Of a stretch of DNA of 64,000 nucleotides, positions 15,200-56,710 are shown one piece after another; position 1 is the first letter of the stretch, and every line of letters begins with the position of its first letter. The notes beneath the pieces are model-generated. The model was not told where the DNA came from. It worked only from the letters and a program-made list of their open reading frames with translations, and made no database searches. A program made the translations under genes and the position numbers. Origin of the DNA: Umbilicaria muhlenbergii (Eukaryota > Ascomycota > Lecanoromycetes > Umbilicariales > Umbilicariaceae); NCBI GenBank assembly GCA_000611775.1, contig KK106983.1:4330808-4394807 (forward strand). Direction: 5' to 3'.

Positions 15200-16035
15200 T
15201 CTTCCTATCTCAATCGGGCCATCACTCTCGATACATACCACCCCCTCAACCGCCCCATTCCCACTACCATAAACCCCCCACCCCCACCCGGGGAAAAAGA
15301 AAACCGCGCCTCACCCGTCGCCACCCCCCCAGGAACGCCACCGTATCCTTCGCACACGGCCGAAACACATCGTCCATCAGATCCGTATCCACCATTCCCG
15401 GATACAACGCTATAGCGGTGATGAGCGGGTTCTTGGCTGCGACGAAGGATTGGGGTTGGCAGGAGAAGAGTTTGGAGAGGGTGGAGCTGGTCATTTTGGG
15501 GGAGGGGGATTGGGGGAAGGAAGGGCGTGGGTGGTGAGCAAGAGGGGCTTTGATATTGACCTCCAGGAAATGGGAAAGGGAGGATGAGGGTAGTGGTGGG
15601 TTTTGGGGGCGTGTGTGAGACGCACGAAACCGAGCCACCACCGGTCTGCGGGCACGGCGGGAGGCGATCGGTCGGGCTGTTGGTTAGGGCGCGGGCGTTT
15701 GTTGTTGAGCAGAACGTCTGCTGGACCGAGTGTTTTCCTTGGTCTTTTGGAAAACTTCTGGTACGGACTTTGGGGCTCGGGACGTCGGTTGCTCACTTCT
15801 AGGACTTGGACTTTGGGGTTGGGAGCCGGTGTTTCTTTGCCTGTGTTGTTGAGTTCGGCGGTATTTCGAGCGAGTAGGACGATGTCTTTAGCATTCGCTT
15901 TTGCAAAGGCGGGAGCGAATGCCTGCTCTTGCTGTTACTTCCTCTGAGCTCGTGCCGAGGGGAGGGGACTGCTGAGCTGCAAACTTTGCCCCCTAAACCT
16001 TTGCTGGCTCCTGTGATGACGATGACCTTGGCCAT
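15200..16035 (-). pseudogene. Short-chain dehydrogenase/reductase pseudogene
   Basis: Remains of a Rossmann-fold SDR. The minus strand starts MAKVIVITGASKGLG (nucleotide-binding TGxxxGxG). A plausible GTTTGC...GAGCAG intron then leads to KANAKDIVLLARN. Further on are LGPADVLLNN (NNAG-type motif, with the AG changed), VDRWW-like and VNIKAPL pieces, and near the end NPLITAIALYPGMVDTDLM. These pieces lie in different frames: there are frame changes around the QKTKE block (about 15740), after LGPADVLLNN and at VNIKAPL (about 15540). The segment expected to hold the catalytic Tyr-x3-Lys between MTSSTL and NPLITAI is absent. The C-terminal end after DTVAFLGG is not recognisable. The host gene is therefore dead; there is no sign of a full copy elsewhere in the window. 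Confidence 0.75.
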
Positions 16036-17228
16036 CTGTGTTAGCTTGGGAGATGTAGGATCGACTGAGGCATACTGGTCACGATAGATTGTCTTTGTGA
16101 ATTGCTAAGCCGTGACATATTGATCTGGGTCGACGCCATTACTTATGAAAGATTGAACGTCTGCTCATATTATTGACTCGTTTTAACTCGGCCTCCCGGA
16201 GGAGGTACTGAGTAGTAAATAAAGATGTTGTAGGAGGTAATTGAGGGAGGATGAAGGAGGGTCAGTATATAGCCTTCAATGGTAAGGTAGGGTTCCTAAC
16301 TGCCTAATATCCTCTAATGCGCAGAACGAAGACGTGCTGGGGAAGAGAGGTAATCAACATGAGTGTTCACACGGCAACATCAGACCCTGCTTTGTTAAGC
16401 CGCCAGCACATAATACTCCATTGGTAGTAATGGTACGAAGAAAATGGTGATTTGCTATCGAACGTGATCGATTATGAAGCAGAGTCGGCGTGTTGGTGAC
16501 AATGTGCAGCTTGCAGCATGCTGCGCAGAACAAACCGAGGCTAATTGTAGCACCTTTAACCCAAATGGTCCTCACGACCACCTCAACGAGACGATAACTG
16601 CGTGGCTCATCACGTTCAGGACAAGGACCACTGATAACCAAGAAATGTCGCAGAAAGCTGAACACTTGTAACCAAGAAACGCTTGACCATCCACCGAATC
16701 AATTAGCAACTCCCATCTATCCTTCAAAGGAGTACACTTAGGAGAAGGCCGTGTGTTGCAAATGCAAAGGTCAGTGCATCGTTACCGCGGCGCTTGATCC
16801 AGTCTCTTGACGCTTTATGAATGCTGCTCTTGAAGTATCGATCCTTGTGTGCAAGCCGGCCGAGCCGAGCCTATAGTACACTTAAGAACGGTGGTGGGCT
16901 GATGTGCTTTATGTTCATTGCTTGCCTGTATTAAAGTACAAGAGTAGCTTGTACTGGATCCTTCATCGAGCTTTGCTCATTGCCGTTGGAACCACCATGG
17001 TCGGATCATGGTGTGAGTCCCGTGGCATTCATGACAGCGCATGTAATCCAGACAAACTTTATACCCGCATGCAGTCCTTATAACCGCTGCAACTGCCAAA
17101 GTAATTGTGGTAGTTGTGGCGTCCAAGCAAGACCGCTGATACTTCGGTTTTGCATGCTTTGTAAACCCTGAATATTTCTGAACCCCTCATGCAAGGAAGC
17201 TCCTTGGCTGAGCTCTGTGGATTATGCT
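16036..17228. other. Gene-poor intergenic region
   Basis: 1.2 kb with no gene recognised. Around 16190-16270 there is a purine-rich patch with repeated GGAGG words. A 103-codon open frame on the minus strand (16354-16665) resembles nothing known to me. Confidence 0.45.
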
Positions 17229-18062
17229 TCAAGGAGGCCCACTGTCAAATATCCGGCCTAGTTCGACGCATACTTCTGAATAAGTTTTAGCCGCTTCCCA
17301 GTGGTGTTTGAAAGGATTGGGGGACTTGTCCCACGCATGAGGAACGGCATGGATCATTCGATACTTGACGTATTTACCCAGAGCCTTCAGGCGAGTTGTG
17401 AAGGCATCGGCTTCGGTGCATAGCATGTCGTACTCGCAAGAATAGATAATGATGTTTTCCGGCAGCTCCCTTAAGGTGTCGTCGGAAGCATTGGCGGGAG
17501 AAAGTAGCGGGTCGGTCAAGTCGAGATTGGGCGGGTGCAAATACGCTTCGTCGAAGAGGGTACATAAGAAAGGAGGTAGATGCTTGTCTGGCCGGGCATT
17601 CATTTTTCGGAGTTCGGCCCTTGGTATAGTCATAGTTACTCGTGGGTACCAGGCTACCGCGGCCAGGACCTGATAATCTGGAGCCACGGCCTCCTTCAAC
17701 AGATTCGATGAACTATGAGCAGCAGGAGCCGACAGGTCGTGCATCAGCATCTCGGAGTCCTCGGACGAGCTTGGACTGTGCTCTAGAGTTTGTGCCACAC
17801 CCTGCTGCTCCAACCGTTGCCGTAATCTCAGCGGAACCGTAAAGGCCATGTTTCCTCCCGCCGAGAAACCAGTTGTTGCAATCCTGTTCACATCGATCCC
17901 GAATTTATCGGCGTTCTTGACCAGGTAGAGAACGGCATCTGTTCCATCTTCCACTGCTTTCGGAAAGGGATATTCCCACGCCGGCTCCAACGGCCACACC
18001 AAAGTCCACAAATCTTTGGCCAACCTTGGGCTCAGCTCGTCCAGCCAAAGCTCTCTATCCAA
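17229..18062 (-). pseudogene. N-terminally truncated alpha/beta hydrolase (ErdH-like)
   Basis: Alpha/beta hydrolase of the HSL/esterase-lipase type. Because it abuts an ErdS-like gene, the best guess is ergosteryl-aspartate hydrolase (ErdH), which removes Asp from ergosteryl-aspartate. The minus frame is open from 18353 to the stop at 17229, but recognisable hydrolase sequence starts only near 18062 (RELWLDELSPRLAKDL, then EYPFPKAVEDG). The nucleophile elbow TTGFSAGGNMAF (Ser), the acid region YSCEYDMLCTEAD and the histidine in HAVPHAWD are intact. The upstream part with the HGGG oxyanion motif is missing. In its place the frame runs antisense through the N-terminal coding region of the neighbouring synthetase, and no ATG with a hydrolase N-terminus is found. 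Truncation is seen directly; the ErdH identity is inference. It could be a still-translated fragment. Confidence 0.6.
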
Positions 18063-20766
18063 CGGAGACAACGGTGGTACGGGCTTGAGCAAAAACCAGC
18101 GGAAAAAGGAGGAAAAGAGACAGAAGAAGGAGGAGAGGCAGCTCGAGAATGTGAAACGAAGGGAGTCGATTGAGAGACGACAGCGGGAAGAGGAGAAGCA
18201 GGCAGAGCGGAATGACCCTGCCGAGCTGAGGGCCCGATATGGAGACCTCATTCTCGTCCACCGCGAGCGCCATAACAACCCTAGCCGTACCATCGAACAA
18301 CTGTCAAAGCAGAGAATTGGTGATACAGCAGCACTCCGGGCACGCATCCACACTTTGCGAAACTTGAGTTCGCACCTAGTCTTCCTCGTCTTCCGCCAAG
18401 GAGGCCGTACCTTGCAGGGAGTCTTGCAGGAAAAGGAAGGAGAAGTGACTCATCACATGGTAAAATGGGTCGAGCATCTCCCGGTGGAGAGCATTGTCCT
18501 TGGCAAGGGGGTTTTGCAAAGGCCAAAGGAAGAGATCAGAGGTGCCTCCGAACACCATTTCGAAATCCTGGTTCGAGAATTACATGTCATTTCACGCCCC
18601 ACCGAATCGCTCCCCATGCACGCCTATGAAGCTGATGCCCCCGAGGCAAATGCCGGAGGAAGGTGACGAGAAAGACCACGAGGAAGACTCGCAGGAATCT
18701 GAAGATCGGAGGGTTCAGATCTCGGACAGGACCCGCCTCAACAACCGGCTCATTGATCTTCGCACGCCGACCGCAAACGCCATTTTCAAAGTCAACTCCG
18801 GTGTCTGTAATCTCTTCCGCTCCTCCTTGGATCCAAAAGGCTTCATGGAAATTCACACCCCGAAGCTGCAAGGCGGCGCTACCGAATCGGGGGCAAGCGT
18901 TTTTCAACTAGAATATTTGGGTAGGCCCGCATTCCTGGCCCAGAGCCCGCAGCTCGCAAAGCAGATGTGCATATCAGCAGACTTCGAAAAGGTCTATGAG
19001 ATCGGCCCGGTGTTCCGCGCCGAAAACAGCAACACACATCGGCATTTGACCGAGTACACCGGACTCGATTTGGAAATGGCTATCGATGAACATTATCACG
19101 AGGCGCTCGATCTGATTGACGCCACGCTCAAGCACATATGGAAGGGGCTATATGATCGATTTGGACGTGAAATGTCAGTGATCAAACGACAGTTCCCCCA
19201 TGAGGATCTTGTTTGGCTCGATAAAACACCTGTGATTCCCTTCAAAGAAGGTATCAAAATTCTCCGCGAGTCCGGTTGGACTGACGACGAAGGAAATCCG
19301 CCTTCTGGCTCGAAGATTTGCATACAAGAGATGAGATACGATTGGGACAGCTAATCAAAGAAAAATATCATACCGACTACTATATACTTGATAAGTTTCC
19401 AGCCTCGGCTCGTCCGTTCTATACCATGCCAGACCCAGACGACGGCCGGGTGACCAACTCCTTTGACATATTTCTACGTGGACAAGAAATTCTGTCCGGT
19501 GGTCAACGTGTTCACGACGCTAAAATGCTAGAGGCGCAGATGGATAAACAAGGGGTCAAGAAGGATGGCATGGAGGACTACCTGGATGCGTTCCGGTGGG
19601 GTGCCCCTCCACATGCAGGTGGTTTCGGGCTTGAGCGGATAGTCATGCTGCTGCTCAACCTCGGTAACATTCGACTTGCATCGCTATATCCCCGCGACCC
19701 GAAGAGTTTCCCTGATGTCCGGAAGGCTGCGGAGCTTCGCTACCCCGAAGCAGATACCTTGCATCCTCCGTGGAAGAACCGGACACGTGAGGAGAATGAC
19801 TACCAGCCAATAGAGAAGCTCATTGCCAACTACGGCGATGCTTCGAACACCTCCTGGCTTGACGACCGATTCCGAATCTGGCGGGACGAGGAAACAGGTG
19901 CCGCTGTGGCATGCGTACCGCAAGGAAAGTACGGCATAATCCCTGGCGATCCACTATGCGCCAAGTCTCAATACCCCCGAGTCATTACCACCTTTCTGAA
20001 ATGGATAAAGAAAGAAAAGGGCCTGAAACCGCTGTGGATACTGTGCGGACACGAGACCGAAGAGGTCTTAGGCGGCAAACTGGGATGGAGTACACTCACG
20101 TGCGCAGCCGAGCAACGCGTAGATCCAGGTCACAACCCCGACGACAGCGACCTAAAACGAAAGATCAAACACGCGGAAAAGGAGGGCGTCAAGATCATCG
20201 ACGTACCCAGCCAAGAGGGCCCCTCGGACGAACTCAAGCACAAATGCGACGCCCGCATCAAAGACTGGCACGCCGGCCGCAAAGGCACCCAAGTCCACCT
20301 CACCCAGATCCTGCCCTGGCGCGACCAAGAACACCGCCGCTACTTCTACGCCCAAGGCAAAGACGGCACCATCCACGCGCTCGTCGTGCTCGCCCAGCTC
20401 GCCCCCGAGCACGGCTACCAGGTGAAATTCGCGCTCGACTTCCCCTCGGCCCCGAACGGCGTCATCGAATCGCTGATTTTGCACGCCATCAAAGCCGTCA
20501 AGCAGGACGGCGAGTCGGGCGTCACGTTCGGGGGCGGCGCGATGGCGCATCTGGAGGCCGGGCACAATCTGGGCGGCGTGCGGGTCAAGTTGCTGGCCGA
20601 GTCTTACAAGGCCATCGCGACGCGGCTGAAGTTGACGCAGAAGAGCGATTTCCGCGAGAAGTTGGGGGCGCAGGAGGATCCGATTTTCATCTGTTTTCCC
20701 AAGAGGGGGCTGGGGCAGGGGGGCATCAGGGCGATTATGAGGTTTTTTGAGGAGGACGATCAGTGA
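18063..20766 (+). pseudogene. AspRS-DUF2156 fusion, ErdS-like, with two frameshifts and no start
   Basis: Aspartyl-tRNA synthetase fused to a GNAT-fold tRNA-dependent transferase (DUF2156), the architecture of ergosteryl-3beta-O-L-aspartate synthase (ErdS). Three frames carry it in order. About 18083-18660 holds the lysine-rich lead (LSKNQRKKEEKRQKKEE) and the anticodon-binding OB fold. 18662-19315 holds catalytic-core sequence TRLNNRLIDLRTP, GGATESGASVFQLEY, LAQSPQLAKQM and FRAENSNTHRHLTEY. 19318-20766 holds motif 3 ([12 protein letters not shown]), then the transferase domain from about 19840 ([28 protein letters not shown], ending [10 protein letters not shown]). The first frame change, in the acidic linker near 18660, fits one extra base. 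The second, near 19312, fits one lost base (expected [12 protein letters not shown]). No GT-AG pair bridges either in phase. Upstream, the frame is open to 17929 but has no ATG. Sequencing error is the alternative. Confidence 0.72.
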
Positions 20767-31644: not shown

Positions 31645-33434
31645 CTATTCATCTCGCAGCACATTCCGAATCCTCTCCCCCAAACCACCAGCCACATTCT
31701 TAGCCTTGTTAGCAGCCATATTAACCTTCGACGACGCAAGCGCGCCCGAAAGCCCGAATTGAGTCGGGATACCCTCGACACGGTGCGTGGAGTTGATGTT
31801 CTTGACCAGGGTGATCTGGTAGCAAGTGGCAGAGCCTTGGCGGGAGATGATGGTGGAGTAGGCGAGGAAGAATTCCCAGATCTGGAAGAAGTAATGAGTC
31901 AGGAAGACGAAAAGGACGTTTTGGAGGAGGAAAAGGGCAATAGGAGGTGTTACTCTAAACCAGCGTTTCCCGTACTTCGCCTCCACCTTCTCCTTGTTCG
32001 CCATCCAATTCCGATACCATCTCCACAGCGTGGCAGAGTAGTGGACACCGACCGTGTCAATTCCTTTGATTTCGAAGCCGGCTCCTTCAAGCTGGTCTAC
32101 GAACCACCCCAACGGCGTACTTGCGTCCGCGCCAGGGAAAATATACTTGTTCATGAAAAGCCCCCAGATCAAGTCCTCGTATTGCCAAGATTTCCGAAGG
32201 CCGGCGATCTGAAGGAAGAAAACGCCATCGTCATCTAGCATATCATAGACTTGTCGTAGGAAAGATGAGAAGTGTCGTACGCCAACGTGTTCGGCCATCT
32301 CGAGGCAGGTGATCTTACTGTATCCACCTGCGCGTACAGGGATGTCGCGGTAGTCCATACATAGGATCTTGCTCTGTTCTTCTGGCACTCCTGCCTTCCT
32401 GAGCGCATTGTTACCCCATGCCGTCTGGTTCCGTCCGAGTGTGACACCCGTAGCGTGAGCACCATACTCGGTGCTGGCGAATTTGGCCAGTGTGCCCCAG
32501 CCGCAGCCGATGTCGAGAAGGGAATCACCAGGCTTGAGGCCGATTTTCTCGCAGACGATTGCCAATTTGTTATCTTGAAGCTGTTCGAGAGTCTCTTCTT
32601 TATTGATGTCACTGATAAGACCAGAAGTGTAGATCATGCGGGGCCCGAGGAACCAGCTGTAAAAATCGTCGCCGCGGTCGTAATGGTCGCGGACTTGTTC
32701 TTCGTCTTTGATCAATTAGCATTTTGAACAGGCCATTGCTTGATAAGGACGGAGAAGGAGTCTACCTTGTGATCGAGTGTGCATGAGCATCTCGGGTATC
32801 ATGCCAGTCAAGAAGAAACGGTACAAGCTCAGCGTCATCCTAAAGTTCGCCCAGTCATGTCTATATTCCATAACCTCCAACGCATCACCCTTGAAATCGA
32901 CGTTGCCCTCAAAATACATCTCATGAAACGTCTCCATAGGAATCTTGCTCTTTCCATGGTATTTCGCCCTGTCACTCTCTTTGTGGAAATGTAAATAATG
33001 CTCAACCCCACGCCCGGGGAATCGAGCTTTCTCATTTTTGCGCGGCGAGATAGTGGAGGCGGTGGTCCAGAAGGAGGCAAGAATCGGAATGGCGGCAATG
33101 ATAGCGAAAAGGATCCAGGTAAAAAGACCTCCGCCGACCTTGCGAGCGAGATATAACGGGACGAGAGCAAGGAGGGCGAAGAGGAGGCCGTTGGAGAAGC
33201 TTTCACTGCCTGCAGCGTCGGCTGGGAGAGGGGCGTTCTTGATTGCTGGGTACTTTCAATGGTGTCAGCTTGGCAGACATGTGCATGGAAGCTTGCATGG
33301 CTTCCAGATCTTCAATTGGAACCTACGGTTGTGGTTCTGACCCCATAATCCTCGGCGGGTGGTGTGGGTGTAGGGGCGGCTGGAGTGTCGATGAATTCGA
33401 AGTCGTCGGACGCCTCTGACACGGACTTGGACAT
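31645..33434 (-). CDS. Sphingolipid C9-methyltransferase
   Basis: SAM-dependent enzyme of the cyclopropane-fatty-acid-synthase family that adds the C9 methyl group to the sphingoid base of fungal glucosylceramide. Exons 33327-33434, 32766-33252 and 31645-32705 give 551 residues. Two membrane spans lie near residues 50-100 (LLFALLALVPLYLARKV and LFTWILFAIIAAIPILASFW). They are followed by FHEMYFEGNVDFKGD, the conserved DHYDRGDDFYSWFLGPRM and SAM motif LLDIGCGWGTLAKFA, then SKITCLEMAEHVG and PLGWFVDQLEGAGFE. Introns are 74 and 60 bases and phase-consistent. The start is the ATG at 33434; open frame further upstream lacks family sequence. Located in the ER membrane by family knowledge. Confidence 0.93.
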
Positions 33435-39637: not shown

Positions 39638-40997
39638 ATGGAGCAACCGTCCAGCACCATGGCTCCACTCACAGAGTACGAAGCGCAGCGGTGAGAAAGC
39701 CAATCATTGATGCACTCTGGCGTCCGCCAGACTGACTTCCACCGTCTCCAGCCAAAGAAACATCGAGTGGAATCGTGCGCTGCTCCAAGAGCTCAATCTC
39801 ACCTCGCCTTTCGCTCCTACCGCCCTGCCAAAAGCTGCCAGAGTGGCTCGGAAGCCTAGAGCCCATAGTCGTAGAGCAGTCCTGGAGCTCTCCCGAGGGA
39901 AATCCGCGCGTATCGCAAATAAAGCGGCTGGCATCAAGGCTCCAGATGTCCCCCTTGACGTGCAGGGGATCCCCGACGACGACCAACCCAGTTCCAGCGA
40001 CGACGAGGACACCTCCCAGGCCGCGGCAGCAGAAGACCCACCCGTATGTACTAAGGTCGACTTCGTGTATCATGCGACCTCAGAAACGAAAGATATATGT
40101 ACTCGTTTCGCGGATGGGAGGGTTGATGACCATTTCCTTGAAAGGCCCGCACGATTCAATCCAGATATGGCCGGAGAATCTGCAAGTATGTCACTGAGTC
40201 TGGCAGCTGGCTCTGCCGCCGAAGCGACCCCCGCCGCGAATCTGCCTCAGGCTGTCGTTGAAGATGTCGTTGAAAGTGCGGCCGTGACTGCGGATCCGAA
40301 TGGATCTCTTCCTCTACCCACACGCCCAACCAAGAACAAGTTGAAAGGGAAAGCCAGGAAAATCGCAAAAGCAAAGCGATTTGGAGATGTCAAAGTTTCA
40401 GTCGGGACATGGTGTGCAAGACGAGCCGACTTCCACGACAACCTCGTGCACCTGCCTACCATGGCAGGAATTTTCGGAGATCCTGACCGTGGTGCGTATT
40501 CGGTTGCCGTCTCCGGCGGCTATGAGGATAATGTCGACCGGGGAGACTCGTTCACGTTCACGGGAGAAGGGGGGAAAATAGTGAACAAACGTAAGAAGCG
40601 TGGGAGCTTGAATAGTACGAAGCCAAACGCTGCGCAGTCCTTAACCAAAGGCAATATGGCACTCTATAGATCATGCCAGACAGGTAAGGCAGTACGGGTG
40701 ATTCGCGGCGTGAACAGTAGCTGGGATGGTGCTCCTAAGAAAGGCTATCGCTATGACGGAGTGAGTGTTGTGTGCAAGCCCACAGGAAATAGTAAGTTGA
40801 ACTGACAGTATTAGCTATACCAAGTCCGTAAAGTGTGGCAACAGCAGGGCTTGTCGGGTTTCCCAGTATTCCAGTACGCGCTGGTACGCATTGCCGGACA
40901 ACCCGATATCGACATCCGCGCCGGTCCAGGATCTCTTCTGGCAGACCAGTTAGGACTAGTGACGGCGGAGAAGCCAGAGACAGAGGAGGCCGGATAA
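39638..40997 (+). CDS. SRA-YDG domain protein
   Basis: Exons 39638-39690, 39752-40760 and 40815-40997 give 414 residues. The C-terminal half is an SRA (SET- and RING-associated, YDG) domain. In UHRF1 and its relatives this domain binds hemimethylated or modified cytosine by base flipping. The order is GTWCARRADFHDN, MAGIFGDPDRGAYSVAVSGG, YEDNVDRGDSFTFTGEGGK, QSLTKGNMALYRSC, GKAVRVIRG, then GYRYDGLYQVRKVWQ across the 54-base last intron and GLSGFPVFQYALVR. The signature YDG is present. The N-terminal half (IEWNRALLQELNL, then Ala/Pro/basic low complexity) has no recognised domain; there is no RING, PHD or SET region. The domain is certain; what it reads in this fungus is unknown. It converges on the nitronate monooxygenase gene, 150 bases away. 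Confidence 0.92.
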
Positions 40998-54832: not shown

Positions 54833-55315
54833 GGTGTTGATGCAATCCAAATCCTTGTGATCAATGGTCGTCGAGGATTCACTATCTTCAAAGGCCCCAA
54901 ACGGCTTCAAATCGCGATTGTAAATGACCAAATTGCCGAAATTATCAGAGGTCGTTCCATTGTTTACAGAGCATGTCTACTCTCTGGTGTTCGGGCGGCC
55001 AAAAAGAGCTGGGTCGGCGGCCGCTTTAAGCTGCCAGAACCAGTTACTTGCAAAGAATCAACAGCTTTCACTCTTTGCTACATTAATTACTATGTCAAGT
55101 TATTTCTTTCAAGCTTATGTGCACATTGCTCTGTCTGTGCATTTATGTGTAACTTTTCTGTTGCATGTGTGCCGTGAACTTGCTCATCTCTCTGTTTATC
55201 ATGTAATTACTTAAAATTCATCTTTAATGCTCTATCTGCTCCAATAAGACACAAACTCATTGAAGATCACCTCTGCCTCTAGAGGGTCTGCGGGCACCTC
55301 TGCGTTCAGCAGTCA
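54833..55315. promoter_or_regulatory. Divergent promoter region BRN1/HNH gene
   Basis: 483 bases between divergent start codons. No gene recognised and no defined motif claimed. Confidence 0.45.
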
Positions 55316-56710
55316 ATGTCAACAATCAATTCGCCTTCTCAACCGCGCATACGACTACGACCAGAAGCCGCCAGTCCTGTTACAGGCGCCGCTCCCCAGC
55401 CCTACTCGATCCACTCAAGACATCGCGTCTGCTTCCGCCATCCCCATTATCGCGCCCCAACAAACGTCCTCCTCGACCTACTTGCGCCAGACGGTCCTGA
55501 TGGGGGCTTGGAATATGACTTTGCACATACGGCATGCGCGGTGATAGCAGGCAATCGATGGGATGGGTTCTTCACAAACGAGGTTGATGGAACGCCTTTG
55601 CAATTTGCACATGGCGACATCATGCCAAAAGGCGAATACTACTTCCGAATCGAAGGCTCGACACCGGAGGATCCATATCCCATCATCCCAACATTTCGAG
55701 AGTGGCCATTCCCACATAACGATCTCCCCCCATCATGGGCAGACAGCGTTCAACCACCGTCGCCAACCTCTGGCCGGTCCTATGCGCCTTCCAATCTCAG
55801 CACTGCCATAATTAACCAGAATATAACCTGTCGAATGAGTGATTTTGAGGAAGGCACAGAAGCAGCACACTTATGCCCCCGAAGCGAGCTTGAATGGTCT
55901 CGGCAAAATCGAATGTCTATATACAATACCAGTCCTAGTCTACCCCCCGACAGGATCCTCGATGATACAGCCAATGCCCTCCTTCTTCGACAAGATCTCC
56001 ACACACAATTCGATGCAAACAAATTTGTCTTTGTGCCGAAGAAGAGAGCAGATACGGCGGGGATTACAAGCATTGTGACGCATTTGCTTATGCCGAGTCG
56101 GGAATTGGGGATGCTCCACCACAACGCACGGCTCAAGCCCATTCCCAACGTCCATCCGGGGTTTCTCTTCGCACGGTTTGCATTGGCTATCTTTAGATTC
56201 TCTGAACAATTCTTGACGGAAGGCGTGGATCGAAACATACTGGGTGTGGATGGTGTGCCCAAGATGGTTTCAGGGAATGACTGCAAGAAACTCACCGCTC
56301 GGACTCGGAGTCAAAGCCCAACAAAGAAATCGAAGAGAACGCTACCTGATGACGATGACGGTGGCCTTATGGATACCGAAGTCGGGCAGCGCAACTACAA
56401 GCGACCAAGACATGACCAGTCGTTCAGAAGCTCAGGTACTAAGACCGTCGGAAGTCCACCAGCAGGCACAGATGCAGTGACAGCCTCGGAGGAAGAGCCC
56501 CAAACACCCCAGACGCAGCGAAGTCAAACCGGGGCATTGCGAGAGGAATGGCTCAAGAGTGAGCGACAAAGATCGGATCCTGAGAATACATGGGCGCAGG
56601 AACAGGCGTGGGTGGAGAGCGTGTGGGATGGGAAGACATCAATGGGTCCGCAGGAGGCGAAGAGGTTTCACGAGTTTTACGGGACGGAGAGTCAGGAATG
56701 GATTCTCTGA
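55316..56710 (+). CDS. HNH-endonuclease-domain protein
   Basis: One uninterrupted exon of 464 codons. The middle carries the fungal HNH_2-type nuclease fold: CRMSDFEEGTEAAHLCPRSE (Asn/Cys-His core), then DDTANALLLRQDLHTQFDAN, in which the Asn and the LH..FD pattern complete the motif, followed by KFVFVPKK. Before it is a region of about 170 residues starting CFRHPHYRAP and DGGLEYDFAHTACAV, common to this fungal family. After it comes a helical block (LHHNARLKPIPNVHPGFLFA) and a basic, disordered tail with SPTKKSKR and KRPRHD, possible nuclear signals. Such genes are common and variable in filamentous fungi and their targets are unknown. No transfer signature is seen. Start ATG 55316 is the first in frame. 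Confidence 0.82.
   Translation: MSTINSPSQPRIRLRPEAASPVTGAAPQPYSIHSRHRVCFRHPHYRAPTNVLLDLLAPDGPDGGLEYDFAHTACAVIAGNRWDGFFTNEVDGTPLQFAHGDIMPKGEYYFRIEGSTPEDPYPIIPTFREWPFPHNDLPPSWADSVQPPSPTSGRSYAPSNLSTAIINQNITCRMSDFEEGTEAAHLCPRSELEWSRQNRMSIYNTSPSLPPDRILDDTANALLLRQDLHTQFDANKFVFVPKKRADTAGITSIVTHLLMPSRELGMLHHNARLKPIPNVHPGFLFARFALAIFRFSEQFLTEGVDRNILGVDGVPKMVSGNDCKKLTARTRSQSPTKKSKRTLPDDDDGGLMDTEVGQRNYKRPRHDQSFRSSGTKTVGSPPAGTDAVTASEEEPQTPQTQRSQTGALREEWLKSERQRSDPENTWAQEQAWVESVWDGKTSMGPQEAKRFHEFYGTESQEWIL

What the first reader, a model, noticed from the sequence alone, without database searches (positions are those of the whole stretch)
17229..20766. Head-to-head ErdS/ErdH-like pair that has lost both facing 5' ends
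An AspRS-DUF2156 fusion (plus) and an alpha/beta hydrolase (minus) meet at about 18062-18083. The hydrolase stops being recognisable there and lacks its HGGG half. The synthetase starts there without any ATG, its frame running antisense into the hydrolase back to a stop at 17926. One deletion of a shared divergent promoter plus both N-termini explains both defects at once. ErdS makes ergosteryl-aspartate from Asp-tRNA and ErdH removes the Asp, so one event would remove the whole tRNA-dependent sterol aspartylation pathway. The families are established; the deletion and the ErdH identity are inference.
Basis: partly seen in the sequence, partly recalled or inferred. Interest (0 to 1): 0.8.

Follow-up and report, generated by a model that had tools for sequence, protein, structure and literature searches.

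The report
Dead fungal sterol-aspartylation gene pair
In a fungus, the gene for an enzyme that decorates membrane sterols with an amino acid, and a hydrolase gene facing it, both look broken, so this copy of the locus most likely no longer works; it is a fossil of a known pathway, not a new system.

Summary
A plus-strand AspRS-DUF2156 gene (ErdS family; nearest solved relative PDB 9w9e/f/g) and a minus-strand HSL-type alpha/beta hydrolase abut at about 18046-18085. The hydrolase keeps its Ser, Asp and His motifs but lacks HGGG and all before it. The synthetase frame has no ATG before 18457.

The "one deletion explains it" story is incomplete. The synthetase lost at most 58 N-terminal residues, ahead of all its domains. 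No convincing GT-AG intron of 40-120 nt removes the frameshifts. So this erdS copy is most likely a pseudogene with several separate lesions, unless the assembly is wrong. Order of events is unknown. One deletion spanning both 5' ends is the simplest cause of the join; a rearrangement is not excluded.

ErdH identity and "whole pathway lost" were not testable, because neither this genome nor any collection of fungal genomes is held. Possible remnants of a short-chain dehydrogenase lie next door. Interest is modest: a likely snapshot of pathway loss.

The parts
17229..18062 (-). C-terminal part of an HSL-type alpha/beta hydrolase; GFSAGGN, EYD and PHAW motifs kept (motifs begin at 17870, 17441 and 17345), HGGG and everything N-terminal missing
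   Evidence: Abhydrolase_3 profile 40-208/210; PDB HSL esterases; motif coordinates
18046..18085 (.). junction zone between the hydrolase remnant and the synthetase remnant
   Evidence: hydrolase-frame DRELWLDEL begins at 18059, synthetase LSKNQ begins at 18085, low-complexity linker between
18085..18645 (+). ErdS remnant, piece 1: Lys-rich extension and OB-fold; no start codon; its frame ends at a TGA at 18664
   Evidence: PDB 9w9f residues 46-247, E 1.3e-37; OB-fold PF01336 below its cut-off, E 0.0023; stop
18637..18671 (+). frameshift 1, in the acidic linker between OB-fold and catalytic domain (a CCCCC run lies here)
   Evidence: frameshift-aware alignment; frames 1 and 2; GT-AG candidates weak
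18671..19303 (+). ErdS remnant, piece 2: AspRS catalytic core with the FRAE motif
   Evidence: PF00152 profile 2-158; 9w9e E 3.4e-98; 143 of 208 identical
19302..19311 (+). frameshift 2, inside the AspRS catalytic domain, not in a long homopolymer run
   Evidence: frame 2 aligned to 19303, frame 1 resumes at 19312; frame-2 stop TAA at 19352
19312..20766 (+). ErdS remnant, piece 3: end of the AspRS domain and the DUF2156 transferase domain, ending at a TGA
   Evidence: PF00152 170-307 and PF09924; 9w9e E 6.2e-199, to its last residue
19606..19638 (+). motif-3 region, one residue short of 9w9e ([11 protein letters not shown])
   Evidence: alignments; coordinates
15267..16036 (-). possible relic of a short-chain dehydrogenase beside the pair (context, uncertain)
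   Evidence: motif order read by eye in different frames; weak or absent library support

Best explanation
This is a pseudogenised erdS (AspRS-DUF2156, ergosteryl-aspartate synthase family) abutting a truncated HSL-type hydrolase in a fungal chromosome (probably a filamentous ascomycete; inferred). Shown from the sequence: the hydrolase lacks the oxyanion HGGG box and all before it; the synthetase has no start codon ahead of its domains, two frameshifts, and one residue fewer than its relative in the motif-3 region (an ATP-binding motif of class II synthetases, family knowledge). Inferred: neither makes its full enzyme, so this locus makes no ergosteryl-aspartate. Inferred, about 60% likely given the rest: the join arose by one deletion that removed a shared upstream region and both 5' ends of a head-to-head pair, and the other lesions accumulated before or after it.
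For: Family and architecture. Frameshifts and motif-3 gap: with boundaries that agree with the single-frame phmmer matches (same reference protein). Hydrolase truncation. Missing hydrolase half not recognised elsewhere in the window. Other genes of the window have long single-frame domain matches (Cpn60_TCP1 457 of 490 profile positions; Cnd2 profile 188-686 of 764; kinase plus 2-5A-type RNase in one 1208-codon frame), so the sequence is not generally error-ridden; this was not a systematic frameshift scan. Full-length proteins of this type are about 950 aa (A. niger 952 aa, PMC4301749, passages; 9w9f chain 947 aa).
Against: The hydrolase frame is still open over 277 codons and matches Abhydrolase_3 in one frame (no frame change there has probability 0.39 if it took indels at the synthetase's rate of 3 in 2670 bp, which counts the in-frame one). 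Much of the synthetase is well conserved and its GC3 looks ordinary, so decay is recent or some lesions are assembly errors. Frameshift 1 lies at a CCCCC run. The motif-3 gap was judged against one relative only. No intact relative at the DNA level was available to show the ancestral order.
Confidence: 0.78

Rival explanations
1. Assembly or sequencing artefact: an intact erdS and hydrolase gene exist in the organism, and the join and indels are errors.
For: Frameshift 1 lies at a CCCCC run. The protein is well conserved outside the lesions (507 of 885 residues identical to the relative). No reads are available.
Against: Frameshift 2 and the motif-3 gap are not in long homopolymers. Other conserved genes in the window have long single-frame domain matches. 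An error would also have to join two genes at their facing 5' ends.
Confidence: 0.12
2. The genes are dead as in the best explanation, but the join is a rearrangement breakpoint (inversion, translocation or insertion of a foreign hydrolase fragment), and the hydrolase is not ErdH and was never a partner. (Overlaps the best explanation; it differs on the origin of the join.)
For: The missing hydrolase half was not recognised in the window. Libraries gave only general HSL-type matches, no specific family.
Against: A single deletion needs one event and explains why both genes lost their facing ends. No repeat of 18 nt or more is listed at the join itself; mobile elements were not searched for otherwise.
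Confidence: 0.3
3. The gene is alive: introns or new first exons hide the frame changes and supply starts.
For: GT-AG pairs of the right length and phase exist, among them 18663-18711 (49 nt) and 19251-19315 (65 nt, with a branch-site-like CTGAC).
Against: The first has a poor donor, a GAG acceptor and no branch-site match. The second would remove about 20 residues, most of them aligned with the solved relative. Neither restores HGGG, a start codon or the motif-3 residue.
Confidence: 0.05

Closest known systems
ErdS, ergosteryl-3beta-O-L-aspartate synthase (Yakobov et al. 2020, not held, cited in PMC9437257; A. fumigatus AFUA_1G02570 per a table in PMC11619415; PDB 9w9e/f/g is the nearest solved sequence)
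   Same: Lys-rich extension, OB-fold, class II AspRS and DUF2156 domains in that order; 507 of 885 residues identical to 9w9e/f
   Different: no start codon ahead of the domains, two frameshifts, one residue fewer in the motif-3 region
ErdH, ergosteryl-aspartate hydrolase (recalled from the PNAS 2020 abstract; paper not held)
   Same: a hydrolase facing an erdS gene; that ErdH lies next to erdS in other fungi was not checked
   Different: no ErdH sequence was available for comparison; this one lacks its N-terminal part and HGGG
Bacterial and archaeal HSL-family esterases (e.g. PDB 2c7b, 1qz3)
   Same: GxSAGG nucleophile elbow, Asp and His motifs
   Different: no HGGG oxyanion box; truncated

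Membership tests
ErdS | AspRS catalytic domain fused to C-terminal DUF2156 | tested here: met
ErdS | near full-length similarity to an ErdS-type protein | tested here: met
   9w9f 46-247, 246-454 and 458-947 matched; calling 9w9f an ErdS is inferred from its architecture, the entry names it aspartate--tRNA ligase
ErdS | one coding sequence with a start codon | tested here: not met
   three frames, no ATG before 18457; hence filed as a pseudogene of the family, not as a working member
ErdS | Asp-tRNA-dependent aspartylation of ergosterol | not testable with these tools
   needs a lipid assay
HSL-type alpha/beta hydrolase | GxSxG elbow with Asp and His motifs | tested here: met
   assignment of the residues is family knowledge
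HSL-type alpha/beta hydrolase | HGGG oxyanion box | tested here: not met
ErdH | orthology to characterised ErdH | not testable with these tools
   no ErdH sequence or fungal genome held; PNAS 2020 not held

The most novel reading that the evidence does not exclude
The gene was split rather than killed: the last frame (19285-20766, first ATG 19426) is kept as a separate DUF2156 transferase, comparable to the Ascomycota glycyl-transferase ErgS (free-standing, recalled), and the headless hydrolase frame, open for 406 codons across the join, is translated with a new N-terminus read antisense from the old synthetase.
Probability: 0.03. Interest if true: 0.6.

Novelty: new member of a known kind. 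Interest (0 to 1): 0.3.

Why it matters
Sterol aspartylation is reported from fungi, with the gene absent in S. cerevisiae (PMC8172173, passage). A recent pseudogene in another fungus would show the pathway being lost in the act, and would offer a natural null in which its role could be tested. It adds no new biochemistry.

Tried and rejected
Own-genome search for a second copy: no genome held. Relatives in viral contigs with the synthetase end and with the hydrolase: none confirmed. Genome contigs with the synthetase end: 30 stretches matched a pattern, none a relative; with the AspRS core: 12 archaeal or bacterial AspRS-type loci at 37-46% identity out of 58 stretches, not useful for the junction and not studied further. 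These scans use exact short peptides, so they reach close relatives only. Hydrolase structure prediction: mean pLDDT 34.7, single sequence, unusable, so no fold search was run. NCBIfam: hydrolase and AspRS hits, all below the curated cut-offs. Repeats: none of 18 nt or more listed at the join. No tRNA genes in the window (ARAGORN). Literature: PNAS 2020 and JBC 2022 not held. Searches on ErdS/ErdH/ErgS names, DUF2156 with ergosterol, ergosteryl with glycine, the PNAS title, PDB 9W9E/9W9F, ergosteryl with pseudogene, and AspRS with DUF2156 showed no paper on loss of the pathway; one search listed only 30 of 3,621 papers, and the one paper (PMC9023262, on tRNA sequences) was seen as a listing only. 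The introns that could hide the frameshifts were enumerated (GT-AG, 40-120 nt, in set stretches) and judged weak. The long antisense frame was tested by codon shuffles and is not rare enough to build on.

Full report
Setting. The window looks like fungal core genome: a TCP-1-type chaperonin, a kinase-RNase of the IRE1 kind, a fungal Zn2Cys6 factor, an ankyrin gene, a CMAS-type methyltransferase, EH- and WH2-domain proteins, an eIF3m-like gene and a condensin subunit (20 frames scanned, 15 with a Pfam match). No genome is held for it, and no collection of fungal genomes is on hand, so everything rests on the window itself, on profile libraries and on the PDB.

The synthetase. The plus-strand pieces match PF00152 in two frames and PF09924 (DUF2156) in the last. 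The nearest solved sequences are 9w9e/f/g (862 and 947 aa), with E 1.3e-37, 3.4e-98 and 6.2e-199 for the three pieces. They share the AspRS-DUF2156 make-up reported for ErdS (PMC9437257, passages) and for the 952-aa A. niger protein called AsxRS in PMC4301749 (passages). A frameshift-aware alignment gives 78/196, 143/208, 101/133 and 185/348 identical residues for N-terminus plus OB-fold, catalytic part 1, catalytic part 2, and linker plus DUF2156, together 507 of 885 (gaps and the three unknown residues left out).

Lesions. The frame changes from 1 to 2 within 18637-18671 and from 2 to 1 within 19302-19311. Left unspliced, frame 1 meets a TGA at 18664 and frame 2 a TAA at 19352. One residue is missing, against 9w9e, in the glycine-rich motif-3 segment, [11 protein letters not shown]. 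There is no ATG in the synthetase frame before 18457, inside the OB-fold. The relative has 58 residues, any expression tag included, before the LSKNQ-like start of solid similarity. The 5' loss is therefore small and falls ahead of every domain, though it removes the start codon. GT-AG introns of 40-120 nt and the right phase were enumerated. For frameshift 1 the candidates that spare the OB-fold alignment start at a GTGACG donor and have no branch-site match. For frameshift 2 every candidate listed removes residues that align with the relative.

The hydrolase. The minus-strand frame matches Abhydrolase_3 from profile position 40 and HSL esterases in the PDB. It keeps GFSAGGN, an EYD acid motif and a PHAW histidine; assigning these as the catalytic triad is family knowledge. 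By the EST2 offset (1qz3) the HGGG box should lie at roughly 18080-18069, just across the join, where the frame reads VPPL. The 7 HGG-type motifs found in the window's six frames are not in a hydrolase-like context by eye. Its matched stretch lies in one frame; at the synthetase's indel rate, no indel in 831 bp has probability 0.39, so this does not show that it is still selected. The frame stays open across the join for 128 further antisense codons, which codon shuffling reproduces in 4.6% of 5000 trials.

Mechanism. The best reading is a pseudogenised erdS beside a headless hydrolase. A single deletion removing a shared upstream region and both 5' ends is the simplest account of the join, but the two frameshifts and the motif-3 loss are separate events. 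It cannot be said which came first: the deletion may have killed an active pair, or may have struck an already dead one. Whether the hydrolase is ErdH is open. I recall from the abstract of the PNAS 2020 paper that ErdH hydrolyses ergosteryl-aspartate; that paper is not held, and none of the passages read here describes the gene order.

What would change the verdict. If the indels are assembly errors, the remaining defect in erdS is only a missing start and short N-terminus; frameshift 1 lies at a CCCCC run and is the weakest of the lesions. If a second copy exists, the pathway is not lost. PMC4301749 lists other cytoplasmic AspRS-type enzymes in A. niger, and PMC8172173 says that the gene is absent in S. 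cerevisiae, so loss should be tolerable for translation; for this species that is inference.

Context. Upstream, pieces reading TGASKGLG, DVLLNN, and SK...PGMVDTDL lie in different minus-strand frames at 15.3-16.0 kb. They look like a decayed or intron-split short-chain dehydrogenase, but library support is weak: adh_short E 0.088 and 0.32 (2 of 4 pieces; the other 2 none), ketoreductase 6yc8 E 0.12, ribosomal L24 ranked above dehydrogenases, and nothing for 2 pieces. If it is real, the stretch between the transcription factor and the ankyrin gene holds three broken genes.

Noticed in passing
15267-16036 (minus): Short-chain dehydrogenase-like motifs in order but in different frames, with NNAG and the catalytic Tyr not recognisable by eye; perhaps another relic next to the pair, introns not excluded.
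   Followed up: partly
17229-18449 (minus): A 406-codon frame stays open from the hydrolase through the antisense of the synthetase, with ATGs at 18347, 18293 and 18251.
   Followed up: yes
31648-33255 (minus): CMAS-type methyltransferase (probably sphingolipid C9-methyltransferase, recalled) interrupted by what looks by eye like an ordinary short intron around the stop at 32716-32718.
   Followed up: partly
55283-56707 (plus): HNH_2 endonuclease-domain protein in a fungal core region.
   Followed up: no
39711-40802 (plus): SAD/SRA-domain protein, a modified-DNA reader type, in one frame.
   Followed up: no
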